Of a stretch of DNA of 64,000 nt, positions 3,680 to 26,040 are shown in pieces. How positions within the stretch are numbered: the first letter of the stretch is position 1; each line of letters begins with the position of its first letter. The DNA comes from a virus. The position numbers were made by a program, and so were the translations under genes. Location: IMG/VR virus record IMGVR_UViG_3300037189_024364, positions 62,001 through 126,000 of that record; one strand, given 5' to 3'. Below the pieces are notes generated by a model. It was not told the DNA's origin, did no database searches, and saw only the letters and a list, made by a program, of their open reading frames with translations.

Positions 3680-4434
3680 AGATAACTTATTATGTTTATA
3701 TTTTGGCTGATCCAAGAAAAAACGATCAGCCTTTTTATGTGGGCAAAGGAACGGGTCGTAGAGCCATCACTCATTTGTGGGAAATACCAGAAACCCGTAA
3801 CATGCACAAAGAAAACAAAATCACTGCTATAAGAGCAGCAGGCCTTGAGCCCAAGATAATTTATGTTGCAGAAAATATAATTGATGAAGACATAGCATAT
3901 GAGCTCGAAGCTTCTCTGATCAAAAAATATGGACGCAAGGGCTACAACAAAGGCGGAATACTTACTAACATTTGCGAAGATTCAAGACCGCCAAATCACA
4001 AAGGCAAATCTTACGAAGAAATATATGGATCAAAAGAAAAGGCAGACCAACAGCGTGCTTTTCGATCAATGCTACAAAAATCTAGGGGAGGATATGGCCC
4101 CAAAATCCATAGCAAAGAAACAAGAGAGAAAATTTCTGCCAAAGGTAAGGGAAGAATTTTGGGGTCATGTCCGGATGAAAGGAAATCTAAGATCGGTGCT
4201 GCAAACTCAAAATACAAAGGTGCGGCCAATAAGAAAAGCTATAGATGGATTTTGACAGACCCAACTGGTATGGACCATATTACAATTGGTAATCTAGATG
4301 AATTTTGCAGATCACTTGGACTTGCCCTAGCAACCATGCATAAGATGTTGTATCATCCTGAATATCGTCCGAGGTCAGGTCCTGCAGTTGGATGGAAGAT
4401 TAGATCAGAAAATGTTCATCATACCGGAGCTTGA
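3667..4434 (+). CDS. GIY-YIG homing endonuclease inserted at nrdB 3' end
   Basis: 255-aa GIY-YIG nuclease. The N-terminal domain reads YYVYILADP...FYVGKGTG with the expected downstream Glu (YELEASLIKKYG). Central NUMOD3-type repeats follow (SKETREKISAKGKG, DERKSKIGAANSKYKG), then a C-terminal helical DNA-binding region. The only start in frame upstream of the domain is GTG at 3667, inside the regulatory hairpin. It lies between nrdB and a downstream duplicate of the nrdB 3' end, as expected if it inserted there. Confidence 0.9.
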   Translation: MQETEITYYVYILADPRKNDQPFYVGKGTGRRAITHLWEIPETRNMHKENKITAIRAAGLEPKIIYVAENIIDEDIAYELEASLIKKYGRKGYNKGGILTNICEDSRPPNHKGKSYEEIYGSKEKADQQRAFRSMLQKSRGGYGPKIHSKETREKISAKGKGRILGSCPDERKSKIGAANSKYKGAANKKSYRWILTDPTGMDHITIGNLDEFCRSLGLALATMHKMLYHPEYRPRSGPAVGWKIRSENVHHTGA

Positions 4435-9290: not shown

Positions 9291-9315
9291 CAACTGAGGA
9301 GAATTTCGCATAAAT
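9287..9315 (+). promoter_or_regulatory. tmRNA promoter
   Basis: TTGACA (9287-9292), 17-nt spacer, ATAAAT (9310-9315). The same bases include TAAATA (9311-9316), so both sigma70-type and late transcription are possible. Confidence 0.65.
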
Positions 9316-9321
9316 AAAGAT

Positions 9322-9577
9322 GTAACTGTTTGACTGTAGCCAAATAAGCTGAACAAGACAGGAGTTCAATTCTCCTCCGGTCCACCATTTATGGGCCGGA
9401 TTTGGGATCGATTGGCAGCATTAAGGGCAAAAGGAATCTAGCAATAGTGCGGTTGCGGTGCGCAAGCTACCTTAACGCAAGAAAATTGTAAATGCAGCAA
9501 ATGATAACGCAGCATTTGAGAATGAGCTGCTAGCAGCGTAATTCCATTGGGCCACAAGGAAGGCCTAGAAACAGAAG
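9322..9577 (+). ncRNA. ssrA: Circularly permuted (two-piece) tmRNA
   Basis: Trans-translation RNA with reversed gene order. The acceptor piece comes first: T arm AGGAG-TTCAATT-CTCCT, then CCGGTCC and an encoded CCA ending at 9387. After only 5 nt the coding piece begins with GGGCCGG (9393-9399), which pairs with CCGGTCC to make the 7-bp acceptor stem, followed by the tmRNA-specific GGGATCGA. The reading frame 9494-9541 gives tag AANDNAAFENELLAA then TAA. Split tmRNAs are typical of alphaproteobacteria and cyanobacteria; the AANDN start fits proteobacteria. 5' and internal 3' ends are approximate. Confidence 0.92.
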
Positions 9578-9601
9578 GGGCGGGAGAAATCCCGCCCTAT
9601 C
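9578..9601. terminator. Bidirectional terminator after tmRNA
   Basis: Stem GGGCGGGA / TCCCGCCC (9578-9585, 9590-9597) with a GAAA loop. It separates the tmRNA from the convergent ADP-ribosyltransferase gene; CCTTTTA follows on the plus strand. Confidence 0.8.
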
Positions 9602-10430
9602 CTTTTATCAGCTTTCCTTTAGCATCAATGTAACCTCGAGCACCAGGCCGATTGTGCAGGATGAATTCGCTTTGTCCCGCGCGATCGGTTATCCAGATGA
9701 TGTCATCAACTGGTATTTCAGCCCTGACCACCTTTGTAAGTTTTCGAGCCCGTTTATCTATCAATTCCTGATGGTATCTCTGATGATCCTTGAATTCATT
9801 CTCAAGATCGTCGCCGTCGGTTAGTAGATCGTCGTGATTGTCATATATGTCGTAATAGAATTCGTCCTTTCCTTCCTCATCAGTCGGAGTGTCCGTGCGA
9901 ACGTATCGGTTCCTGAGGAATTTAACCTCTCCTGTTTTGGCATATGTGTCCAATGCGGATTGTATTTGTTCATCGGTAATGGGCTTCAGCTTCATTTCCC
10001 ACGGTTCGATACCGGCGAACGTGGCAGCAATTCGGGGATCGGATGTCCAGCTAAGTGTGGTTCTTTCCGTTTTCTCATTATCAATGCTCTCTTGGCCTCG
10101 ATACAACGTCATAACATTGCCAAACTTAGACTTCAATGCCGACTTTATAGGAGCAAATGCCGAATCCAACTGCTGACGCATTTTGATTCCTCGGGGACTT
10201 GGATTGGAAGAATATGCGTCTTCAAGCGGTCTGGAATGCATGATTCCAAATGTATATCCTTTTTTTATCGCATCGTGGGGAACCCCAACAAATGCGTCTA
10301 TGGCGGCCGCGGCTTCATCACCTAGATCGGCATCTGCCTGATTTACCAATGCACCGATGCCAAGTTTAACAACGCTGATGTCGGTAAATGATTCCTTGAT
10401 GATGTTTCTAGCCAATTCAATGATTCTCAA
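9597..10430 (-). CDS. ADP-ribosyltransferase with capsid-targeting-like N-terminus
   Basis: 277 aa. Expected R-S-E elements: TLYRGQ (NAD-binding Arg, near residue 110), LSWTSDPRIAATFAG (STS-like strand, near 130) and QSEFILHN (catalytic Glu, near 255), the last as Q-x-E rather than E-x-E. The N-terminus MRIIELARNIIKES matches the capsid-targeting peptide family of this window. T4 Alt is an injected ART that modifies host RNA polymerase; this is a candidate analogue, target unknown. A TAAATA motif and RBS (AGAGGA) precede the gene. Confidence 0.78.
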   Translation of the reverse strand: MRIIELARNIIKESFTDISVVKLGIGALVNQADADLGDEAAAAIDAFVGVPHDAIKKGYTFGIMHSRPLEDAYSSNPSPRGIKMRQQLDSAFAPIKSALKSKFGNVMTLYRGQESIDNEKTERTTLSWTSDPRIAATFAGIEPWEMKLKPITDEQIQSALDTYAKTGEVKFLRNRYVRTDTPTDEEGKDEFYYDIYDNHDDLLTDGDDLENEFKDHQRYHQELIDKRARKLTKVVRAEIPVDDIIWITDRAGQSEFILHNRPGARGYIDAKGKLIKG

Positions 10431-18685: not shown

Positions 18686-19411
18686 ATGGACGATAGATTA
18701 CCGACATTGGTGGTGATATCAGGGGCAGGTCTCAGCGCCCCGAGCGGCGTAGCAACTTTTCGAGATCAAAACGGTCTCTGGAACGGCTACGACGTCGACG
18801 TGGTTTGCAACGCATTAACATGGCGAGATTATCGGGAGGTTGTGCATGGATTTTACAACACCCTGCGGTCCAGTCTAGCTTCGGTTGTACCCACGATCGG
18901 GCACAGGCTCCTTTCAAATTGGAAGAAGGATTTCACCGATAGATCCATCATGTTGACACAAAACGTCGATGATCTACTTGAACGTGCCGGGTGCGATGAT
19001 ATCATCCATTTACACGGATATCTACAGGACATGAAGTGCATCGCATGCGGGCATGTTTGGGATGTTGGATATGAACCTTGGTCGGTTGACAACGATAGAT
19101 GCCCGAAGTGCAATAGTTCCAAGGGTGTAAAGCCCGGCGTGGTATTTTTCAACGATTCTGCCCCGAGGTATGCTGATCTCTATCGAGCGTTCAAGCGGCT
19201 ATCTAGCCGAGATGTGGTGGTGATGATCGGTACCAGCGGACAGGTGATCAACATCAATGCATTGATGACAAACTGCCCTGCTTTCAAGATACTCAACAAT
19301 CTTGAACCGTGTAACAGCATTGACGGCGATTTGTTTCATGAGGTCTTTTACGATTCAATCGAAACGGCCGCACCTGCATTGGATGATCTGGTTAGGAGCA
19401 AAATGGTATGA
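18686..19411 (+). CDS. Sir2-family NAD-dependent deacylase
   Basis: 241-aa sirtuin. NAD-binding motifs GAGLSAPSGVATFRD and TQNVDDLLERAG, catalytic His in IHLHGYL, and a four-Cys zinc module (CIACG, CPKCN). KPGVVFFNDSAP and VMIGTSGQV complete the fold. Could deacylate host or phage proteins, or act in NAD depletion like defence sirtuins; domain length fits a simple deacylase. Overlaps the next gene by 4 nt. Confidence 0.93.
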   Translation: MDDRLPTLVVISGAGLSAPSGVATFRDQNGLWNGYDVDVVCNALTWRDYREVVHGFYNTLRSSLASVVPTIGHRLLSNWKKDFTDRSIMLTQNVDDLLERAGCDDIIHLHGYLQDMKCIACGHVWDVGYEPWSVDNDRCPKCNSSKGVKPGVVFFNDSAPRYADLYRAFKRLSSRDVVVMIGTSGQVININALMTNCPAFKILNNLEPCNSIDGDLFHEVFYDSIETAAPALDDLVRSKMV

Positions 19412-20055
19412 AATTAATATTCTGCCTTCCTGGGCGCACATTTAGCTCCAACTATTTCAACTCGTGGAATTCAACCATTGCCGAATTGAGCGCTCGAGGT
19501 ATCAGTTACGCATACAGCATGGGATATGATCCGGTGGTGTATTATGCTAGAAATCGAATATTAGGCGGCCAGAATACCGCCGGACGTTCCCAACTGCCGT
19601 GGCAAGGGAAACTACCCTACGATCAGATGATATGGATCGATTCGGATATGGTATGGTCACCAGATGATGTTCTCAAGCTGATCTCCAGCGACAAGCCCAT
19701 CACCGGTGGCACATATATCATGTCCGACAATCAACATTATCCGGTGGTGGAAAATCTAGATTTCTCTCATCTTGCTGATCACGGGGTATTTAAGTTCATG
19801 GATCGCAACGAAATGGCATTTAGATCGCAGCCATTCAGAGTTAGTTATACTGGATTTGGATTTGTTGCCATCAAGGCCGGTGTCATCGAACAAATGGAAT
19901 ACCCTTGGTTCCGGCCGAGATGGGTCAGCAATGAAAGATTCCATGATTTTTGCGCCGAGGACGTTGGATTCTGTTGGACTGCCCAGGAGAATGGACACGA
20001 AATTTGGATAGATCCAACAATACGTGTTGGACATGAAAAGTCAACGGTGCTATGA
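19408..20055 (+). CDS. Glycosyltransferase-like protein
   Basis: 215 aa. KLIFCLPGRTFSSNYFNSW opens the protein and MIWIDSDMVWSPDDVLKL holds a D-x-D site near residue 75, followed by a GTYIM turn. Resembles phage proteins annotated as glycosyltransferases. ATGA overlaps tie it to the sirtuin and to the SGNH-like gene. Confidence 0.75.
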   Translation: MKLIFCLPGRTFSSNYFNSWNSTIAELSARGISYAYSMGYDPVVYYARNRILGGQNTAGRSQLPWQGKLPYDQMIWIDSDMVWSPDDVLKLISSDKPITGGTYIMSDNQHYPVVENLDFSHLADHGVFKFMDRNEMAFRSQPFRVSYTGFGFVAIKAGVIEQMEYPWFRPRWVSNERFHDFCAEDVGFCWTAQENGHEIWIDPTIRVGHEKSTVL

Positions 20056-20897
20056 TCGACCAAATGCCATCTCGATTATTTTTCAACGGATGTTCGTTTG
20101 TTCATGGTCTTGATGTAGCCTGGGATTACAACAAGAATCCCAGGCTCACCGAGGAAAGTCGAATCCTGGGCAGCAACTACTGGCACGATCTGCAGAAAGT
20201 TAATCTATCAGGGCGCGTACATGCGTTAATGGGTTCTACGGAAGTGGTTAACAAGGCCCGAAATGGCAACAACAACGACGTAATAGCATATGATACCATT
20301 GCATTTTTCAAGGCGATGATGGATTCGGGTGGCGATCCAACCGAATGGATGGCATTTATTGGCTGGACCGAGCCAGCACGTATAATGATATTTGATGAAG
20401 TGAATTCGCACGCAGCGATGACCTTCAATCCGTTTAATATCAACGACCTTATCAAACAAACTTCGATGTATGATAATGATCGCATGCAATATCTACATGA
20501 ATTTTATGAACGTCACCGAGAGTTTAGCAAGGCATTTGTCACCTGTGCAACTCCGACATGGTTGGCCAATCAACTGCTGAGGTCAGTGCTGACCTTGCAG
20601 TTTTTTCTAGATTCAATCGGTGTGAAATATGTGTTTTGGAATAGCTTGCATCCCATGCCAAGACCAAATGGTGCATATCTACCAAGGATGATTTATTCAA
20701 CCATTGACCAATCTCATTGGTTACCGGTATGGAGCACAACTGATCATCCAATATTTACAGGTTGGTTACCGACGATCAAAAAGTCCATGATGACTAGGAC
20801 CAACCATCCGACCAAGGAGGCAGTGGACATCTTTGCTGATCAGCTAGTTGGATTTGTTCAAAAATCCCATGGATTAGCGATTGACACTGTGACCTAG
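20052..20897 (+). CDS. SGNH/GDSL-like protein
   Basis: 281 aa. N-terminal FFNGCSFVHGLDVAWD has the G-x-S nucleophile elbow of SGNH hydrolases; KARNGNNNDVI could be block III (G-x-N) and WLPVWS...DHPIFTGWLPT the C-terminal region. May act as an esterase or acyltransferase on the glycan built by neighbouring enzymes. The 3' end overlaps the promoter of the following RNA genes. Confidence 0.6.
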   Translation: MIDQMPSRLFFNGCSFVHGLDVAWDYNKNPRLTEESRILGSNYWHDLQKVNLSGRVHALMGSTEVVNKARNGNNNDVIAYDTIAFFKAMMDSGGDPTEWMAFIGWTEPARIMIFDEVNSHAAMTFNPFNINDLIKQTSMYDNDRMQYLHEFYERHREFSKAFVTCATPTWLANQLLRSVLTLQFFLDSIGVKYVFWNSLHPMPRPNGAYLPRMIYSTIDQSHWLPVWSTTDHPIFTGWLPTIKKSMMTRTNHPTKEAVDIFADQLVGFVQKSHGLAIDTVT

Positions 20898-20909
20898 ATC
20901 ACATACATT
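20881..20909 (+). promoter_or_regulatory. Promoter of Y-RNA-like transcript 1
   Basis: TTGACA (20881-20886), 17-nt spacer, TACATT (20904-20909). The first stem of the RNA begins 9 nt later. Confidence 0.7.
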
Positions 20910-20917
20910 ACGTGCAA

Positions 20918-20970
20918 GGGAAACATGCAGCAAACAAAAATTGCTTTGTACGCAAACCAAAAGCTTTCCC
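20918..20970 (+). ncRNA. Y-RNA-like element 1 (short, no tRNA domain)
   Basis: End stem GGGAAA (20918-20923) / TTTCCC (20965-20970) enclosing a CATGCAGCAAAC motif. Same plan as the other members: closing stem, then (T/A)GTTCAGCAAC-like sequence. No tRNA-like arms. Confidence 0.5.
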
Positions 20971-21002
20971 GCTTTGTTGTTTAGAAATTTGAGAATACCA
21001 TA

Positions 21003-21093
21003 AGGAACGGTGCAGCAACACCTTAAAATCAGGAAGCTACGTTTGTAGCAAAACCAGGAGCCCAGCCTGGCTAAACAAGGGCAAAACGTTCCT
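21003..21093 (+). ncRNA. Y-RNA-like element 2
   Basis: End stem AGGAACG (21003-21009) / CGTTCCT (21087-21093), then GTGCAGCAACACC. Inside are two hairpins, GCTAC-GTTT-GTAGC and CCAGG-AGCCCAG-CCTGG. It shares the 20881 promoter with element 1. Confidence 0.55.
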
Positions 21094-21340
21094 GAGGGCA
21101 TTTATCAATGGATGGGTACAGCAGCATACTTCGACCCAACGGCGACGACTGGATCCTAGGTCCATTAGTCATCGAGGCTGCCTGGGCTTAGCCAGGATCG
21201 GTCTTGCACGAGGCAAGATATTGCTTGGAAGAAATCAAGCTAGGGCAGAAGGTGGGACCATATCGGTAACTGGACTTTGAATCCAGCTCTGGGCGATATG
21301 GATAAGATAATCTGCCAGAAAGAAATAAAAAGCGAACCAC
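21094..21340 (+). ncRNA. Structured RNA region with a Gln(UUG)-like anticodon arm
   Basis: No ORF. Stems seen: CTTGC/GCAAG (around 21203), GCTTG/CAAGC (around 21225), and CCATATCG/CGATATGG enclosing CTGGA-CTTTGAA-TCCAG, a perfect 5-bp, 7-nt anticodon arm with anticodon TTG (around 21268). D and T arms are not recognisable, so this is not a canonical tRNA. Probably the downstream part of the transcript from 20909, ending at the 21360 terminator. Confidence 0.5.
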
Positions 21341-21359
21341 AAACCATCCTGTAAAAAAG

Positions 21360-21395
21360 CAAAAGGGCATGCATCGATGGGTGCATGCCCTTTTG
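21360..21395. terminator. Strong bidirectional terminator
   Basis: 14-bp stem CAAAAGGGCATGCA / TGCATGCCCTTTTG (21360-21373, 21382-21395) with flanking A and T runs. Confidence 0.88.
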
Positions 21396-21409
21396 CTGTT
21401 AAATAGCTC

Positions 21410-21841
21410 ATGGACATGCGCAAACTTATTAACCTCCTAGAAAAATCTACCTACAAACGTGGAGGTAAGATAGGAAGGTGGGCGTTCCTATACATGGAAC
21501 CTACCCCGGCAAAATCTGAGAATTTCGCACAATGCAGTACCTGCCAGCTATTCATGCCCGGCAAACAACGCTGTGGTATATTCGGTAAGGATGACGTGGT
21601 CAAAGCCAATGGCAGTTGCGGACTTTATCTGCAAGGTGTGCCACACGATGATCAGCCCATTCAGGATATTGTCACACCCGAGGCATCTGGCTATGTTGAA
21701 GCCAATGTTCGCTGCGAAAACTGCGGATGGTTTGAAAATGGATCCTGTGGATTGTTTGTCATGCTTGACGACAAGATTCCGGATACATTTGATCTAGGCG
21801 GAAAGGTCGATGCCAAGGGCTGTTGTAACGCTTGGAACTGA
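21410..21841 (+). CDS. Cysteine-rich protein with capsid-targeting-like N-terminus
   Basis: 143 aa (start could also be Met3). Starts MDMRKLINLLEKS, matching the MRxLIN peptide family. Two Cys-rich modules follow (CSTCQLF...CGIFG...CGLYL and CENCGWFENGSCGLF), spaced like a HiPIP-type iron-sulfur or zinc protein. TAAATA (21400-21405) is 4 nt before the ATG. Probably a late, packaged protein; cofactor unknown. Confidence 0.7.
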   Translation: MDMRKLINLLEKSTYKRGGKIGRWAFLYMEPTPAKSENFAQCSTCQLFMPGKQRCGIFGKDDVVKANGSCGLYLQGVPHDDQPIQDIVTPEASGYVEANVRCENCGWFENGSCGLFVMLDDKIPDTFDLGGKVDAKGCCNAWN

Positions 21842-21846
21842 CTGCA

Positions 21847-22554
21847 TTAATCTCGACCTGACGATATCTGATTCAATACTTTGGACAACCGACTTGTGAA
21901 TCCGAGATCATTTGCTGGGTTCCTATTGCGACTTTCATGTTCCATAGGTATCGGCGGGCTGATTTCATTGCCGTCTAGCCATATCAGTATTATATCCGGA
22001 TCGGTATCATCTTGCACAAACACTGCTCTGGTTTGATGTGGATTACCACCGCGGCTATTATGTATTACCATGGCCTTTGCCATGTCTCTGAAAATTCGCG
22101 AGCTGCCGAACACGGTTACCATGCCGCGGAAGAACGTGCCATCAAACGCATAGATGGTCCATTTCTCCTGGCTCTTACCACTGAGCTCCCACATGCGCTT
22201 CTTGAAGAAATTCACGTCGGTGTAGTCATTAGTTGCAATGTCATTTCTTGTTGATCGCTGATCCGTTTGCCAGGCCGGAAATCCTCGATCATCCTTGGCC
22301 ACCGTAGCAGATGCCGGAGCTTTGAGCACATCATACGCCGCATTTATCATGGCAAGTGGTTGGTGATCACCGCCGGTCTTGTCAGGATGCATCTGTCTGA
22401 CCAATTTTATCCAGGTTGCTCGGATTTTATCGGGCGAGAGATCAGCGTCATTAGCACCATATTGCTTGAAAATGCCACGGGCCTGCCCAGGCGTTAGATC
22501 CTCGAGGAGGAATTTTATTCCGGATAACTCCAGCAATCTTATGAAATCGAACAT
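21847..22554 (-). CDS. J-domain (DnaJ-like) protein
   Basis: 235 aa from ATG 22554. The J domain spans roughly residues 20-85, with the essential HPD in VRQMHPDKTGGD and the tail INAAYDVLKA. No Gly/Phe or zinc-finger region, so it is a minimal co-chaperone that could redirect host DnaK. The N-terminus MFDFIRLLELS is like the capsid-targeting peptides. TAAATA overlaps an upstream ATG (22560) and lies 5 nt before 22554, the geometry of other late genes, which decides the start. Confidence 0.82.
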   Translation of the reverse strand: MFDFIRLLELSGIKFLLEDLTPGQARGIFKQYGANDADLSPDKIRATWIKLVRQMHPDKTGGDHQPLAMINAAYDVLKAPASATVAKDDRGFPAWQTDQRSTRNDIATNDYTDVNFFKKRMWELSGKSQEKWTIYAFDGTFFRGMVTVFGSSRIFRDMAKAMVIHNSRGGNPHQTRAVFVQDDTDPDIILIWLDGNEISPPIPMEHESRNRNPANDLGFTSRLSKVLNQISSGRD

Positions 22555-22588
22555 GCGCATATTTATGCAGGACATTTGATCTTTTCCG

Positions 22589-22617
22589 TTGACACGATCA
22601 CTGATCGATCGTATTAT
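22589..22617 (+). promoter_or_regulatory. Promoter of tRNA-like RNA A
   Basis: TTGACA (22589-22594), 17-nt spacer, TATTAT (22612-22617); the end stem of RNA A begins 9 nt downstream. Confidence 0.8.
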
Positions 22618-22625
22618 CAAGGCAA

Positions 22626-22725
22626 GGGATTAGTTCAGCAACTAACATTCAACCTACAGGTCATCGGTTCGAATCCGATCCGTTCCTCTGATATGGGACG
22701 GTAGCTCAGTTGGTAGAGAATGTTC
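22626..22725 (+). ncRNA. Permuted tRNA-like RNA A (probable Y RNA, interrupted 3' side)
   Basis: GGGATTA-GTTCAGCAAC motif (22626-22642), then a tRNA 3' half: T arm ATCGG-TTCGAAT-CCGAT and CCGTTCC (22680-22686). After an 8-nt linker comes a tRNA 5' half: GGGACGG (22695-22701), TA, D arm GCTC-AGTTGGTA-GAGA. GGGACGG pairs with CCGTTCC over 7 bp. The 3' strand of the outer stem is not found; the GIY-YIG gene 22706-23365 abuts and overlaps here, so the locus may be split by it. Confidence 0.65.
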
Positions 22726-23365
22726 TCCCCCGTCGCCAACACTTTCCCGGATTTATATGAGACCGTATATCTTTTACCCCATTTGTCCACCAATATTGGC
22801 CCTTATTTGCATCGCTTTGTTTCTTTTTTGTGTCTTCTGACACTGGACCTCTGCGAAGCGCAGCATCTTGTATTTTTTTACGGATTTCTAAAGATCTGGG
22901 GCCCGTAAGCTTGCGGCTGGCGCTTTCTTTTATCTTTCTCCGGTGTTCATCGGATAATTTACGACCTATTAACGATTTGCTCAGTTTTTCTCGAACATGT
23001 TGTGGCATGGTAGGTCGACTTTTGGCCGACTCTGAAATCTTTTGGCGAGATTGTAAGCTATGGGATCCTCCTGTTCCTCCGTCATTCATGTTTCGAAGTA
23101 TGCCAGAGCCATCACTTATTTTTCCGTACCACCGTATGTATCGACGCTCTAACGCAAGTGCCCCTAATTCAGTTAAGTTCTCTTCCATAATGACTATGTA
23201 ATCAAAGTCTTTTGGAACAGGAATATTCTTATGATCCACGTATGCTCTATATCCTTTTCCCTTTCCGATATAATAGGGAGTTCCTTTCTGTCCTTGTGTA
23301 GATGTTTGATTTCGAATATACGCATAAATGTAGAAACCTGATGGTATTCTATGGTACATAGTCAT
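22706..23365 (-). CDS. GIY-YIG endonuclease within the tRNA-like RNA array
   Basis: 219 aa from ATG 23365 ([18 protein letters not shown]). GIY-YIG core: FYIYAYIR...[13 protein letters not shown], with [11 protein letters not shown] holding the catalytic Glu. Two NUMOD3 repeats follow ([22 protein letters not shown]). Its last codons and stop lie within the D-arm sequence of RNA A, the sort of junction left by insertion into an RNA gene. Antisense to the RNAs. Confidence 0.88.
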
Positions 23366-23443
23366 GCTGTGACTCCTATCGGTTATAGAGCAGTTGGGGA
23401 TTCCGGCCCGCGAACTGCACACAATATTTAGCCAAAATACGCA

Positions 23444-23472
23444 TTGACTAGATGAGATATTTGCACTAATAT
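23444..23472 (+). promoter_or_regulatory. Promoter of tRNA-like RNA B
   Basis: TTGACT (23444-23449), 17-nt spacer, TAATAT (23467-23472). Confidence 0.75.
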
Positions 23473-23481
23473 TACGTTAAT

Positions 23482-23601
23482 GGATCAGTTCAGCAATTAA
23501 ACGCATGTCAAGCCGTAGGTCGCAGGTTCAATTCCTTGCCATCCCCGCCACAATTTACTATGGGGGTGTAGCTCAGAGGTAGAGCAACGTAAAGGTGATC
23601 C
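23482..23601 (+). ncRNA. Permuted tRNA-Asp-like RNA B (probable Y RNA)
   Basis: Outer stem GGATCA (23482-23487) / TGATCC (23596-23601), then GTTCAGCAA. Next an anticodon-type loop ATGTCAA (anticodon GTC, Asp), AGGTC, T arm GCAGG-TTCAATT-C(C)TTGC, acceptor CATCCCC, discriminator G and an encoded CCA (23548-23550). An 11-nt linker leads to GGGGGTG (23562-23568), which pairs with CATCCCC, then TA and D arm GCTC-AGAGGTA-GAGC. The T stem has an extra T, hinting at a mimic rather than a working tRNA. Confidence 0.75.
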
Positions 23602-23667
23602 TGTCGAATTATAATGTAAATGCAAGTTATTAGAAATAAGAAAGTTGATTACAGCGCAAATTAGTCG

Positions 23668-23696
23668 TTGACAAGAGCTAAAAACTAGCATAACAT
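23668..23696 (+). promoter_or_regulatory. Promoter of tRNA-like RNA C
   Basis: TTGACA (23668-23673), 17-nt spacer, TAACAT (23691-23696). Confidence 0.78.
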
Positions 23697-23704
23697 AGAT
23701 TTAA

Positions 23705-23836
23705 TGGATCAGTTCAGCAACAAACTGGAAGGTAAAATCGCCGGCGAAAGCCACTGTTGGTTCAAGTCCAACTCCCCCTACCAACCGAAGGGGGATAGCC
23801 AAATGGTAAAGGCAGCGATCCACAAAAGTTGATCCA
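23705..23836 (+). ncRNA. Permuted tRNA-Tyr-like RNA C (probable Y RNA)
   Basis: Outer stem TGGATCA (23705-23711) / TGATCCA (23830-23836), then GTTCAGCAAC. The 3' half follows: GTAAA (Tyr-like anticodon GTA) with stem strand ATCGC, a class II variable arm GGC-GAAA-GCC, T arm GTTGG-TTCAAGT-CCAAC, acceptor TCCCCCT, A and encoded CCA (23781-23783). Five nt later the 5' half begins: AGGGGGA (perfect 7-bp acceptor), TA, D arm GCC...GGC, A, GCGAT pairing ATCGC. No U33 is available next to GTA, so a simple religation does not give a normal anticodon loop. Confidence 0.78.
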
Positions 23837-23856
23837 GCATTAGATCAAGAGTTCAA

Positions 23857-23940
23857 GGAATCGGTTCAGCAACTACTTCGGTTGAAGCGACGCCCTTCGC
23901 GGGGCATTGTGAGGATGGTTCAAACCCACCATTCGATTCC
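23857..23940 (+). ncRNA. Y-RNA-like RNA D with degenerate tRNA-like arms
   Basis: Outer stem GGAATCG (23857-23863) / CGATTCC (23934-23940), then GTTCAGCAAC. Inside: CTTC-GGTT-GAAG (D-arm-like), GCCC-TTCGCG-GGGC, and GATGG-TTCAAAC-CCACC (T-arm-like). No separate promoter is clear, so it may be co-transcribed with RNA C. Confidence 0.6.
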
Positions 23941-23951
23941 GTACACTTTAT

Positions 23952-24004
23952 AGGTTGAGTTCCGCAACACCAATTGTTTTTATCAAACAAACCAAGTTCA
24001 ACCT
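23952..24004 (+). ncRNA. Y-RNA-like motif in the Ro60-like gene 5' UTR
   Basis: Outer stem AGGTTGA (23952-23958) / TCAACCT (23998-24004), then GTTCCGCAACACC; no tRNA arms. It ends 10 nt before the RBS (GAGGAG) of the Ro60-like gene, so the protein could bind and control its own mRNA. Confidence 0.5.
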
Positions 24005-24026
24005 GACACAGATGAGGAGAATAGAA

Positions 24027-25442
24027 ATGGTCACTTTCGCACAGGCACTACAGAATACCATGCAGCCGAGCCTTACTGCCAACGGCATGGCAACCAATCA
24101 AAGCAGCCTTGACCCTAACGTGGATCTGTTCTTCGCCATCGGTTCCAGCCGCGGCAAGGATCTCACCGGCGCATTTGCCCGTGCATATGCGGCCGAGCCG
24201 GCTGTGGCCATGAAGATCCTATTCTGGGCGCGCGACGTTCGCGGCGGTGCTGGCGAGCGTGAGACCTTCCGCAAGATCGTTCGTAACCTGGAGGTCAGCC
24301 ATCCGGAGAGCCTCATGCGCAATCTTGCGCTGGTACCCGAGTACGGTCGCTGGGACGACCTCCTCGAGTTCAAGACGCCGCAGGTCAAGATGGCGGCATA
24401 TGACCTGATCGCACGCGCCCTGCGTGGCGGTAACGGTCTTGCTGCCAAGTGGATGCCCCGCAAGGGCGAGGTAGCCAACGAGCTGCGCAAGTACCTGAAC
24501 TTCACTCCCAAGCAGTACCGCCGACTCGTCGTTGACCTCACCAAGGTTGTTGAGACGCAGATGTGCGCCAAGACCTGGGATCAGATCAACTACGATCACG
24601 TTCCTAGCGTGGCTGCCAACCGCTATCAGAAGGCCTTCAACAAGCGCGATGCCACCCGCTACGCGGCTTGGAAGGAGGGTCTCAAGGACGGCACAAGCAA
24701 GGTCAACGCCGGTGTGCTTTATCCGTACGACGTCATCAAGGCAGTTGCACATGGTGACCGTGCTGTGGCACTGGCGCAGTGGGAGGCACTGCCGAACTAT
24801 CTCGGTGATGATGCCATCCTTCCGATGGTGGATGTCAGCGGTAGCATGAGCTGCCCGGTTGGCGGACAGGCGGGTGCAGGTCTTACCTGCATGGACGTGG
24901 CAATCAGCCTCGGTCTGTATGTTGCCGACAAGCAGCAGGGTGCGTTCAAGGACATGTGGCTGACGTTCACCCGTGACAGCCACATTGACGTGCTCAAGGG
25001 AGACCTGCTAGCCAAGATCAACCAGGTGCGTCGCAACGTTGGTTACGACACCAACCTGGAGAGCGCGTTCCGCAGCATCCTGCAGGTGGCGGTGCAGAAT
25101 CGCGTGCCGGCTGATCAGATGCCTCGGTACCTCCTGGTGTTGAGCGACATGGAGTTCAACGCGGCCTGGGCCGGCGGTGCAAGCCTGGGTGCGTTTGATC
25201 TTGCCCAGCGCATGTTCGAGGCGGCTGGATACGAGCTGCCCAAGCTGGTGTGGTGGAATCTCAATGCCCGCCCGGATGCCACCGGCAACAGCCCAGTGCG
25301 CTTCGATCAGCGCGGCACGGCAATGGTGAGCGGGTTCAGCCCGAGCATCATGAAGAGCATCCTGGCGGCAGAGAACTTCACGCCGCGAGACATCATGCTT
25401 GAGACCATCATGGGTGAGCGCTATCAGGCCGTCACGGCCTGA
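24027..25442 (+). CDS. Ro60-like ring protein (TROVE/DUF2828 plus vWA)
   Basis: 471 aa. HEAT-repeat-like N-terminal part with hallmark RDVRGGAGERETFRKI and PEYGRWDDLLEF, then a von Willebrand A domain with MIDAS DVSGSMSC near residue 270 and a TFTRDS segment. Ro60 rings bind misfolded RNAs and Y RNAs; bacterial and phage Ro60 genes are known to have tRNA-like Y RNAs nearby, as here. It could equally be labelled DUF2828. RBS GAGGAG precedes ATG 24027. GC-rich codon use differs from neighbours, suggesting high expression or separate origin. Confidence 0.82.
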   Translation: MVTFAQALQNTMQPSLTANGMATNQSSLDPNVDLFFAIGSSRGKDLTGAFARAYAAEPAVAMKILFWARDVRGGAGERETFRKIVRNLEVSHPESLMRNLALVPEYGRWDDLLEFKTPQVKMAAYDLIARALRGGNGLAAKWMPRKGEVANELRKYLNFTPKQYRRLVVDLTKVVETQMCAKTWDQINYDHVPSVAANRYQKAFNKRDATRYAAWKEGLKDGTSKVNAGVLYPYDVIKAVAHGDRAVALAQWEALPNYLGDDAILPMVDVSGSMSCPVGGQAGAGLTCMDVAISLGLYVADKQQGAFKDMWLTFTRDSHIDVLKGDLLAKINQVRRNVGYDTNLESAFRSILQVAVQNRVPADQMPRYLLVLSDMEFNAAWAGGASLGAFDLAQRMFEAAGYELPKLVWWNLNARPDATGNSPVRFDQRGTAMVSGFSPSIMKSILAAENFTPRDIMLETIMGERYQAVTA

Positions 25443-25470
25443 TTGACAACGATAAGAAACGTGCTATAAC
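25443..25470 (+). promoter_or_regulatory. TGCTAT-class promoter
   Basis: TTGACA, 16-nt spacer ending in GTGC, TATAAC (25465-25470), starting at the Ro60-like stop codon. Confidence 0.8.
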
Positions 25471-25475
25471 TTCGT

Positions 25476-25510
25476 GGGTGCTGATGGAAACGTCAGCACC
25501 CATTTTCTTT
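25476..25510 (+). terminator. Hairpin plus T-rich tract at the transcript start
   Basis: GGGTGCTGA / TCAGCACCC (25476-25484, 25493-25501) followed by ATTTTCTTT. It can terminate the Ro60-like mRNA; for the promoter just upstream it forms the very 5' end of the RNA. Confidence 0.7.
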
Positions 25511-25541
25511 GGAGAATCATCATGCACAGGCTATTACCTTT

Positions 25542-25703
25542 ATGGAGATCACCCGCAAGAGCTGGATACCAGGCAGCAACGAAGGCAGCCAGAGCCAGGA
25601 ATACGAGCCATACCGTGTGCTCATGGCAGCTATGAACAAGGTCATGGCTGCACGAGATGCCGAATATGGCAATGAGGATTGCGAAGAGGAAGAAGATGTA
25701 TAG
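25542..25703 (+). CDS. Small acidic hypothetical protein
   Basis: 53 aa (MEITRKSW...CEEEEDV), unrecognised, acidic tail. No RBS at ATG 25542; a TTG at 25509 would give 64 aa, and another frame opens at ATG 25522 behind GGAG (37 aa, ending 25635), so the start is uncertain. Overlaps the next gene. Confidence 0.45.
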   Translation: MEITRKSWIPGSNEGSQSQEYEPYRVLMAAMNKVMAARDAEYGNEDCEEEEDV

Positions 25704-26040
25704 GATAGTTAGAGGAAGTCTGCGGGACTTCCCGTTGACCAGCAACTTCCATCGTGAGGGCTGGTGGTGGCATTCAAATGGTGACCCCGAGGGTTGGGAT
25801 TATGGCTTTGCTCCAGAAGGTCCGTTCCTCACCAAGGCACATGCCCAAAGGCATCTGAATAATACCCTACGATTGCACAGGGTAGCACAAAAAACAGGTT
25901 GTTGGCCCACCATGCCCACCGGTGCAGGTCTGTGCCCCAACTGGGGCGGTAGGTGTGCCAAGCCTACCATGAAGCCACTCAAGGGCACTAGATTTTTTGG
26001 TGAAAAGTATAGGAACTATCTCAAGGAGATGGAGCGATGA
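25696..26040 (+). CDS. Hypothetical protein
   Basis: 114 aa from ATG 25696, inside the end of the previous ORF. Trp/Gly-rich N-terminal half (EGWWWHSNG), then FLTKAHAQRHLNN, like the small phage proteins that display a tracking of query fields but without known function. ATGA overlap with the next gene. Confidence 0.6.
   Translation: MYRIVRGSLRDFPLTSNFHREGWWWHSNGDPEGWDYGFAPEGPFLTKAHAQRHLNNTLRLHRVAQKTGCWPTMPTGAGLCPNWGGRCAKPTMKPLKGTRFFGEKYRNYLKEMER

What the first reader, a model, noticed from the sequence alone, without database searches (positions are those of the whole stretch)
20881..25442. Ro60-like ring protein gene with an array of seven motif-sharing, tRNA-mimicking RNAs
Seven RNAs (20918, 21003, 22626, 23482, 23705, 23857, 23952) share one plan: a 6-7 bp end stem, then GTTCAGCAAC or a close variant right after the 5' strand. 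Stem sequences differ but pair, which is covariation-like. Four hold tRNA-like arms and four promoters (TTGACA/T-N17-TA...T) place transcription starts at the end stem. Bacterial and phage Ro60 genes are known to have nearby Y RNAs with a tRNA-like domain. Here the set is unusually large and the tRNA parts differ between members. This may be a phage RNA quality-control or tRNA-decoy system.
Basis: partly seen in the sequence, partly recalled or inferred. Interest (0 to 1): 0.95.

Follow-up and report, generated by a model that had tools for sequence, protein, structure and literature searches.

The report
Phage Ro60 with tRNA-mimic RNA array
A large phage carries a gene for a Ro60-like ring protein beside an array of small RNAs that share one handle and display different pieces of tRNA, in related phages including real-looking anticodon loops, so the RNAs may serve as tRNA decoys during infection.

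Summary
Beside a DUF2828/DUF7788 gene whose predicted fold is Ro60 (VIA-align Z 20.5) lies an array of small RNAs with a closing stem and a GTTC(A/C)GCAA-type motif. Six of the seven reported RNAs have a perfect closing stem; 22626 lacks its 3' arm; an eighth, larger member lies at 21110-21349. The stem covaries across phages, and the RNAs go with the gene (22 of 27 contigs picked by RNA pattern, 2 of 22 controls). Three window RNAs are YrlA-like: T arm, acceptor, D arm in circularly permuted order.

New is the anticodon arm, absent from a review's account of YrlA. Among 88 short RNAs chosen by closing stem alone, 7-nt-loop hairpins occur in 49 against 8.9 in shuffles, loops of 4, 5, 6 and 8 nt are at background (9 nt: 17 against 8.4), and 44 of 52 loops have U33. 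One stem carries different triplets in different phages. 19 of 59 permuted RNAs keep an anticodon arm. I favour a Ro60-bound set of tRNA/anticodon decoys (0.4); no functional data exist.

The parts
24027..25442 (+). DUF2828 + DUF7788 protein, 471 aa, with a Ro60 fold
   Evidence: Pfam; PHROG 850 'RNA-binding protein'; AF2 pLDDT 81.7; VIA Z 20.5 to 1yvp_A over 398 residues; Foldseek 9kop E 3.3e-10, 2nvo E 1.8e-7
20918..20970 (+). RNA 1: GGGAAA-CATGCAGCAAA ... AAAAGC-TTTCCC; inner hairpin TTGC-TTTGTAC-GCAA (4 bp, 7-nt loop, U33); loop TTTTGAT in L003, TTTCGGT in L004
21004..21092 (+). RNA 2: GGAACG-GTGCAGCAAC ... CGTTCC
21110..21349 (+). RNA 8 (not in the finding): GGATGG-GTACAGCA ... AAA-CCATCC-TG, 240 nt
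   Evidence: by eye, coordinates; folds of its inner part, and of the L003 homologue (z -3.51, -2.07, -1.82); those folds did not include both closing arms
21258..21301 (+). inside RNA 8: stem CCATATCG/CGATATGG carrying hairpin CTGGA-CTTTGAA-TCCAG (Gln UUG type); L003 has CCACGTCG/CGATGTGG and loop TTTTGGA
22627..22719 (+). RNA 3, broken: motif, T arm, acceptor hairpin and D arm present, 3' closing arm absent
22706..23422 (-). gene with a NUMOD3 motif whose 3' end overlaps RNA 3 (GIY-YIG-like by eye, from recall)
23482..23601 (+). RNA 4: permuted tRNA-Asp(GUC)-like module; 3' half 23503-23550 with CCA, loop 23551-23561, 5' half 23562-23589; extra U in the T stem
   Evidence: joined halves called tRNA-Asp(gtc) by ARAGORN
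23705..23836 (+). RNA 5: permuted tRNA-like module with a long variable arm, no anticodon loop
   Evidence: z -3.25; as L001
23857..23940 (+). RNA 6: closing stem, hairpins and a T-arm-like hairpin
23953..24003 (+). RNA 7: short member next to the gene; closing helix of 9 bp with tandem G.U pairs
   Evidence: 51.6 bits, but it is a member of the model
20881..20909 (+). promoter-like TTGACA-N17-TACATT before RNA 1
22589..22617 (+). promoter-like TTGACA-N17-TATTAT before RNA 3
23444..23472 (+). promoter-like TTGACT-N17-TAATAT before RNA 4
23668..23696 (+). promoter-like TTGACA-N17-TAACAT before RNA 5

Best explanation
What it is (about 0.9): a phage Ro60-type protein with a family of Y-type RNAs. 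Each RNA has a common handle (a closing stem of 6-9 bp, in the short members ending in tandem G.U pairs, then CAGCAA or CCGCAA on the 5' side and usually AA(G) on the 3' side) that I infer to be the Ro60 binding part, and a swappable display part taken from tRNA. In relatives the display is (a) D, acceptor and T arms in permuted order, as in YrlA; (b) the same plus an anticodon arm; (c) D, anticodon and T arms in normal order without acceptor; (d) the anticodon stem-loop alone; or (e) no recognisable tRNA part. How it works (about 0.4 in full): the RNAs are made in quantity, some from their own promoters, are held by the Ro60 ring, mostly cannot be aminoacylated because the acceptor is sealed or absent, and act as bait for enzymes that attack or handle tRNA, above all anticodon-loop nucleases; the swappable triplet sets the target. 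Shown: handle, covariation, linkage to the gene, tRNA-derived displays, anticodon-loop signature. Inferred: expression and abundance, Ro60 binding, decoy action.
For: Handle: motif 45 times denser in the 2 kb upstream of the gene (59 in 94 kb against 19 in 1,354 kb); of 35 unique sites picked by motif alone 30 have a perfect 6-nt partner downstream, against mean 6.0 and maximum 12 in 1,000 partner shuffles (50 of the 51 loci). 39 of 48 loci have at least one RNA in 2.5 kb upstream; 108 on the gene's strand, 7 on the other, 3 in one shuffle (near-duplicate loci included). Linkage: 22 of 27 contigs of 100 kb or more chosen by RNA pattern encode DUF2828, against 2 of 22 tRNA-bearing control contigs (Fisher 4e-7). 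Anticodon display: among 88 non-redundant short RNAs picked by handle alone, 49 have a hairpin of 5 bp or more with a 7-nt loop (shuffles 8.9, max 15); loops of 4, 5, 6 and 8 nt are at background; 44 of 52 loops have U33 (27% in shuffles). A34, rare in bacterial anticodons (recalled), is in 2 of 44 U33 loops, against A in 10 and 12 of 44 at positions 35 and 36. Stem TTTGA/TCAAA carries UUU, UCU, CAU, GCU, UGU and others; TCTTT/AAAGA carries GUA, ACG, GCA, GGA, UGA. All 20 permuted RNAs with an anticodon that I tested become ARAGORN tRNAs once de-permuted, 0 of 20 as encoded. Sealed acceptor: 13 of 59 acceptor loops begin with (N)CCA and 24 of 59 are 5 nt or shorter. Precedent: Hughes et al. 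raise the possibility that YrlA's tRNA-like domain competitively inhibits the anticodon nuclease (PMC7790460, passages). Possible abundance: in Listeria phage CKA15 two loci that its authors judge non-coding, within 2 kb upstream of an Rsr-like gene, take about 67% of phage transcripts at 40 min (PMC12282133, passages and section 8).
Against: 40 of 59 permuted RNAs show no anticodon loop by my test and 39 of 88 short ones no 7-nt-loop hairpin, so anticodon decoy cannot be the role of every member. In the window the clear anticodon hairpins are few: UUG at 21270, and GUC in 23482, whose local hairpin has only 2 bp. 2 of 35 tallied triplets would read stop codons, and the triplets range beyond tRNAs that known anticodon nucleases cut (recalled). 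In Salmonella, YrlA was not cut by the RecA-dependent tRNA nuclease (PMC7790460). No expression, binding or cleavage data exist for this phage, and the abundant CKA15 RNAs were not shown to be the RNAs described here. 9 of 48 loci have no detectable RNA upstream; of 12 named phage loci scanned, five (KVP40, GAP32, Munch, OC, DLP6) show none that I accept.
Confidence: 0.4

Rival explanations
1. Tether: as in the known Y RNAs, the tRNA-like part recruits a tRNA-binding effector (PNPase, an RNA ligase, a tRNA-modifying enzyme) to the Ro60 ring for RNA quality control or tRNA repair; the anticodon loop is the effector's landing site rather than a decoy.
For: Y RNA tethers Rsr to PNPase in Deinococcus, and a review ascribes PNPase binding to the effector domain (PMC7790460 and PMC8394870, passages). 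RNA ligase gene directly upstream of the DUF2828 gene in GAP32 and close upstream in Munch; a 'tRNA-splicing ligase' gene 1.3 kb downstream in Listeria phage LMSP-25. RNA ligase PF09414 over cut-off in 10 of 28 records.
Against: RtcB in 2 of 28 and PF09414 in 10 of 28 records (records may be fragments), and none in the window's own record, so no one ligase goes along. One effector would not explain many triplets on one stem.
Confidence: 0.35
2. Permuted tRNA genes: the handle is an intervening sequence; removing it and opening the acceptor yields working tRNAs, as in red-algal permuted tRNA genes (recalled).
For: De-permuted RNAs are well-formed tRNAs (20 of 20; swapped halves 30%, shuffled letters 0). 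In split anticodon stems nt 27-28 pair with 42-43 in 7 of 10, against a shuffle mean of 2.6 with 3 of 5,000 shuffles reaching 7. In Cronobacter phage S13, Aeromonas phage Aeh1 and metagenomic L134 and L203 the handle is a hairpin set into the anticodon stem of a tRNA in normal order with CCA. Window 23482 keeps CCA.
Against: 46 of 59 acceptor loops lack an initial (N)CCA and 24 are 5 nt or shorter; 40 of 59 have no anticodon by my test; anticodon-only members and normal-order members without acceptor cannot become tRNAs. The T stem of 23482 has an extra U. The joined forms were made with the tRNA fold in mind, so one search is not independent.
Confidence: 0.12
3. Debris: tRNA pieces spread by recombination within phage tRNA clusters, without function.
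For: Some arrays lie within tRNA clusters; (N)CCA remnants in 13 of 59 fit descent from tRNA genes.
Against: Covarying closing stem, strand bias, linkage to one gene and specific enrichment of 7-nt U33 loops.
Confidence: 0.05

Closest known systems
Bacterial Y RNA YrlA (Rfam RF02553) with Rsr/Ro60
   Same: Closing stem formed by the RNA's ends; tRNA-like module with T arm, closed acceptor, then D arm, in that order; Ro60-type gene beside it. Window 23514-23591 and 22659-22719 match the model at 29.0 and 24.9 bits.
   Different: Scores lie below the gathering score of 69 (also 0 of 14 phage records over it); CAGCAA is not in the YrlA consensus printed; relatives carry anticodon arms, whereas a review lists D, T and acceptor arms for YrlA (PMC8394870, passage); several members per phage.
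Phage and bacterial Y RNAs near Ro60 genes (Chen et al. 2014, cited in PMC7790460; paper not held, content recalled)
   Same: Likely Y RNAs with a tRNA-like domain near Ro60 in bacteria and phages.
   Different: I could not check whether anticodon-bearing or anticodon-only kinds are described there.
Ro60 of Thermus phage phiLo (PDB 9l5y; title only)
   Same: A phage Ro60 with a solved structure; Z 16.4 to the window protein.
   Different: Matches TROVE by its title for 9kop/9l5y; nothing seen about its RNAs (paper search found none).
Putative Y RNAs of Listeria phage CKA15 (PMC12282133)
   Same: Strongly transcribed loci upstream of an Rsr-like gene, TTGAC/TATAMT promoters, Y RNA suggested by the authors. 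In the relative LMSP-25 I find three RNAs with this handle just upstream of the DUF2828 gene.
   Different: No handle or anticodon loop in the passages read; identity with my RNAs not established.
Circularly permuted tRNA genes (PMC3978253; search listing with start of abstract)
   Same: Permuted order of the tRNA halves.
   Different: Most acceptor loops here lack CCA; no splicing shown.
Phage tRNAs that evade anticodon nucleases (PMC10264068, PMC11455837; passages)
   Same: Phage RNAs with tRNA anticodon loops in the same arms race.
   Different: Those are real tRNAs that resist cutting; the terms decoy, mimic and Y RNA do not occur in the main text of PMC10264068.

Membership tests
Ro60/TROVE protein | Helical-repeat ring followed by a vWA domain, Ro60 fold | tested here: met
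   VIA Z 20.5 to 1yvp_A, 398 residues, rmsd 4.2; first non-Ro row 11.1; Foldseek's top three hits are TROVE/Ro entries
Ro60/TROVE protein | MIDAS motif DxSxS in the vWA domain | tested here: met
   D269, S271, S273 invariant in 28 aligned proteins
Ro60/TROVE protein | Match to Pfam TROVE PF05731 | tested here: not met
   0 of 29 records, own included; DUF2828 and DUF7788 instead. I call it Ro60-like by fold, not a Pfam TROVE member
Ro60/TROVE protein | Binds Y RNA | not testable with these tools
   no binding data
YrlA Y RNA (RF02553) | Closing stem plus permuted T-acceptor-D module | tested here: met
   23482 and 23705; 22626 has the module but not the 3' arm
YrlA Y RNA (RF02553) | Model score at or above the gathering score | tested here: not met
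   29.0 and 24.9 bits against 69; 0 of 14 records over it, and 13 of 14 control genomes also give sub-threshold matches
YrlA Y RNA (RF02553) | GNCGAAN0-1G motif (recalled) | not tested
   -
Circularly permuted tRNA gene | 3' half before 5' half; joined halves form a tRNA | tested here: met
   23482 becomes tRNA-Asp(gtc); 20 of 20 RNAs tested
Circularly permuted tRNA gene | Acceptor end that can mature | tested here: inconclusive
   13 of 59 acceptor loops begin with (N)CCA; 24 of 59 are 5 nt or shorter; window 23482 has CCA and an 11-nt loop
Circularly permuted tRNA gene | Spliced, mature tRNA in the cell | not testable with these tools
   no RNA data

The most novel reading that the evidence does not exclude
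Phages carry a programmable decoy set: one Ro60-binding handle on which anticodon stem-loops are swapped by changing only the triplet, each member drawing off a particular anticodon nuclease or other tRNA-targeting defence. Phage Ro60 would then be a counter-defence platform.
Probability: 0.33. Interest if true: 0.95.

Novelty: new variant of a known kind. Interest (0 to 1): 0.82.

Why it matters
The role of phage Ro60 (DUF2828) is open as far as I could find, although 675 of 50,697 phage records hold a relative. RNAs that display anticodon loops on a common handle beside it give a concrete, testable role for the tRNA-like part of Y RNAs and a possible new kind of counter-defence. They also account for odd annotations, such as 'tRNAs' of more than 110 nt in phages S13 and Aeh1.

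Tried and rejected
Read first as pre-tRNAs spliced like permuted tRNA genes; demoted because many acceptors are sealed and anticodon-only members exist. YrlA membership at Rfam cut-off: not met. TROVE by Pfam: not met. RtcB as partner enzyme: 2 of 28 records. DNA similarity of 20000-26000 to named phages: only the protein gene matched, in 2 records; 23857-24026 gave chance matches of 21 nt in 5 records. A handle pattern with 50 hits in viral contigs gave none in the collection of 84,980 prokaryote species, and a tRNA-bearing pattern that I did not run in that form on viruses gave none either; exact patterns do not exclude divergent cellular forms. Named phages: of 12 loci scanned (L241-L252), Bas63, Lolly9, phiM12, BUCT-ZZ01 and RHph_I1_18 have RNAs of this kind, S13 and Aeh1 the inserted form, and KVP40, GAP32, Munch, OC and DLP6 none that I accept (some descriptor hits inside genes were set aside). 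Covariance model R1 finds 23953 in the window (51.6 bits, a model member); 22627 and 23706 are weak (E 0.16 and 0.42); outside the model it finds BUCT-ZZ01 3838-3896 (E 9.5e-5). In one search two of five measures are less striking: further pair types reached by 100 of 500 shuffles, pairs changed on both sides by 1 of 500. Papers: (DUF2828) listed plant papers only; searches showed nothing on anticodon-bearing Y RNAs in phages; most subscription papers are not held.

Weak points of my counts: one search had a faulty pattern and was replaced; one search counted some RNAs twice and its output was cut, so I use it for the window only and otherwise; rows of alignment A2 were partly chosen by pairing, so one search is biased and one search is the cleaner test; one search used 50 of 51 loci, 48 of 51; loci include near-identical contigs. 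The 27 contigs are those of 100 kb or more in the listings shown (one search shows 80 of 120), leaving out L061 and L213, which lie in contigs already known to have the gene. Controls are those of 60 kb or more shown (80 of 120), leaving out L254, which lies in a tested contig that has the gene; among the seven of 100 kb or more 1 has it. Normal-order members and the second S13 and the L055 cases were read by eye.

Full report
Setting. The window is part of a 170,318-base virus record (window = bases 62001-126000). A contig of 452,799 bases carries a gene whose protein is 100% identical (L002). The only tRNA-type gene ARAGORN finds in the window is a permuted tmRNA, and Rfam at gathering score gives the same.

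The protein. The 471-aa product of 24027-25442 matches DUF2828 and DUF7788 in Pfam and PHROG 850, 'RNA-binding protein'; NCBIfam gives nothing. Pfam TROVE matches in 0 of 29 records, own included. An AlphaFold model from 28 relatives (pLDDT 81.7) aligns with Ro autoantigen over 398 residues at Z 20.5, first non-Ro row 11.1; Foldseek's three best hits are TROVE/Ro entries. MIDAS residues D269, S271, S273 are invariant. By sequence profile the PDB gives only chance-level matches. Relatives exist in 675 of 50,697 phage records, with names such as 'RNA-binding protein', 'Ro-like RNA binding protein' and 'putative Ro sixty-related protein'. So the gene is a phage Ro60 by fold.

The handle. Six of the seven reported RNAs have a perfect closing stem with the motif. 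RNA 22626 has motif, T arm, acceptor and D arm, but its 3' arm is missing; the L003 homologue is intact, and in the window a minus-strand gene with a NUMOD3 motif lies there. An eighth RNA at 21110-21349 closes with GGATGG/CCATCC. In 50 of the 51 loci the motif GTTC(A/C)GCAA is 45 times denser in the 2 kb upstream of the gene than elsewhere; of 35 unique sites chosen by motif alone, 30 have a perfect partner for the preceding 6 nt, against mean 6.0, maximum 12 in 1,000 shuffles. In an alignment of 19 short members 97.7% of cells pair, five of nine pairs change on both sides, and the covariation score is 0.400 against 0.111 (0 of 500 shuffles; some rows had been chosen by pairing). The inner end of the helix is a tandem of G.U and U.G pairs. 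39 of 48 loci have at least one such RNA in 2.5 kb upstream, 108 on the gene's strand, 7 on the other, 3 in one shuffle. Nine of the 48 have none.

Linkage to the gene. Of 27 contigs of 100 kb or more found by RNA pattern, 22 encode DUF2828; of 22 control contigs of 60 kb or more found by an ordinary tRNA pattern, 2 do, 1 of 7 among those of 100 kb or more. Fisher's exact p is 4e-7. The handle pattern with 50 viral hits has none in the prokaryote genome collection.

The tRNA modules. Rfam's YrlA model matches 23514-23591 and 22659-22719 at 29.0 and 24.9 bits, under its cut-off of 69; the matched order (T arm, closed acceptor, D arm) is the YrlA order. Sub-threshold matches also occur in 13 of 14 control genomes, so the order and the handle carry the argument, not the score. 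Over the loci I found 59 non-redundant RNAs of the permuted kind. In 19 of the 59 an anticodon stem-loop is present (U33, purine 37), nine with the whole 5-bp stem locally and ten with it split by the handle; in the split ones nt 27-28 from the D side pair with 42-43 in seven of ten, against 2.6 in shuffles, with 3 of 5,000 reaching seven. When the halves of these 19 and of window 23482 are put in normal order, ARAGORN calls all 20 tRNAs with the expected anticodon, and none as encoded; letter shuffles give 0 and swapped halves 30%. The joins were made with the tRNA fold in mind, so this shows fit rather than processing. 13 of 59 acceptor loops start with (N)CCA and 24 of 59 are 5 nt or shorter: I infer descent from tRNA genes, with many that cannot mature to tRNAs.

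Other layouts. At least five members carry D, anticodon and T arms in normal order with the handle in place of the acceptor: L040:4250 (UUU), L063:4524 (UCU), L015:6852 (GCA), L020:889 (UGU), L047:7627 (AUA) (order read by eye). In Cronobacter phage S13, Aeromonas phage Aeh1 and metagenomic L134 and L203 the handle is a hairpin with a TG..AA loop set into the anticodon stem of a tRNA in normal order with CCA; a second S13 case and L055 were read by eye. S13's two are annotated tRNA-Ser and tRNA-OTHER, Aeh1's tRNA-Val of 122 nt. So one composite fold occurs opened at either end.

Anticodon loops alone. Short members were collected by the two handle patterns in all loci up to L240 and reduced to 88. 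Hairpins of 5 bp or more with a 7-nt loop occur in 49, against 8.9 (maximum 15) in dinucleotide shuffles; loops of 4, 5, 6 and 8 nt occur in 10, 10, 11 and 10 against 11.2, 10.5, 10.5 and 9.1; 9-nt loops in 17 against 8.4. Of 52 seven-nt loops, 44 have U at position 33 (27% in shuffles). An earlier form of the test gave anticodon-type loops in 20 of 72 and 7 of 18 RNAs, against 0.97 and 0.11. A34 occurs in 2 of 44 U33 loops, against A in 10 and 12 at positions 35 and 36. One stem carries different triplets: TTTGA/TCAAA has UUU, UCU, CAU, GCU, UGU and others; TCAAA/TTTGA has UGA, GAA, GAU, UGU; TTGC/GCAA has UGU (window), UUG (L003), UCG (L004), GUU. Two of 35 tallied triplets would read stop codons, so not all are sense anticodons.

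Function. Shown: fold of the protein, handle, linkage, tRNA displays. Inferred: expression, binding of the handle by Ro60, decoy action. In the P100-like Listeria phage CKA15 two loci that its authors judge non-coding, within 2 kb upstream of an Rsr-like gene, took about 67% of phage transcripts at 40 min; strong early promoters had TTGAC and TATAMT, and the authors suggest Y RNAs (PMC12282133, passages and section 8). The relative LMSP-25 has three RNAs with this handle just upstream of its DUF2828 gene, but I could not show that these are the abundant ones. Hughes et al. raised competitive inhibition of an anticodon nuclease as one possibility for YrlA, and found YrlA itself not cut (PMC7790460, passages). 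A review describes YrlA as resembling D, T and acceptor arms (PMC8394870, passages), so the anticodon arm is the difference. I put the decoy reading at 0.4, a tether for a tRNA-handling effector at 0.35, permuted tRNA genes at 0.12, debris at 0.05.

Limits. Chen et al. 2014, which by recall reported Y RNAs near Ro60 in bacteria and phages, is not held; I cannot say that anticodon-bearing forms are absent from print, only that searches did not show them.

Noticed in passing
window 9294-9632 +: Permuted tmRNA in a phage record (ARAGORN tmRNA*, tag AANDNAAFENELLAA; Rfam tmRNA_permuted 67.7 bits).
   Followed up: no
window 21054-21082: CCAGGAGCCCAGCCTGGCTAAACAAGGGC inside RNA 2 looks like a pseudoknot; L003 has it and L004/L006 a variant (CAGGAGCACAACCTGTATAAATAAGGGCAA).
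   Followed up: no
L241:5896-6138 (Cronobacter phage S13), L246:8151-8272 (Aeh1): Annotated tRNAs of more than 110 nt are tRNAs with this RNA's handle set into the anticodon stem.
   Followed up: partly
L244:6388-6540 (JohannRWettstein bas63_0137, minus): Annotated hypothetical CDS overlaps RNAs of this family on the other strand, so it may not be a gene.
   Followed up: no
short RNAs in loci such as L088, L099, L146: Some members instead have hairpins with TATGG or ATTGG in or near the loop; meaning unknown.
   Followed up: no
window 18686-19411 +: Sir2-family protein in the phage (SIR2, E 8.3e-36).
   Followed up: no
PMC12282133: The Rsr-like CKA15_055 protein was among proteins detected in purified phage particles (passage), so phage Ro60 may enter with the DNA.
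   Followed up: no
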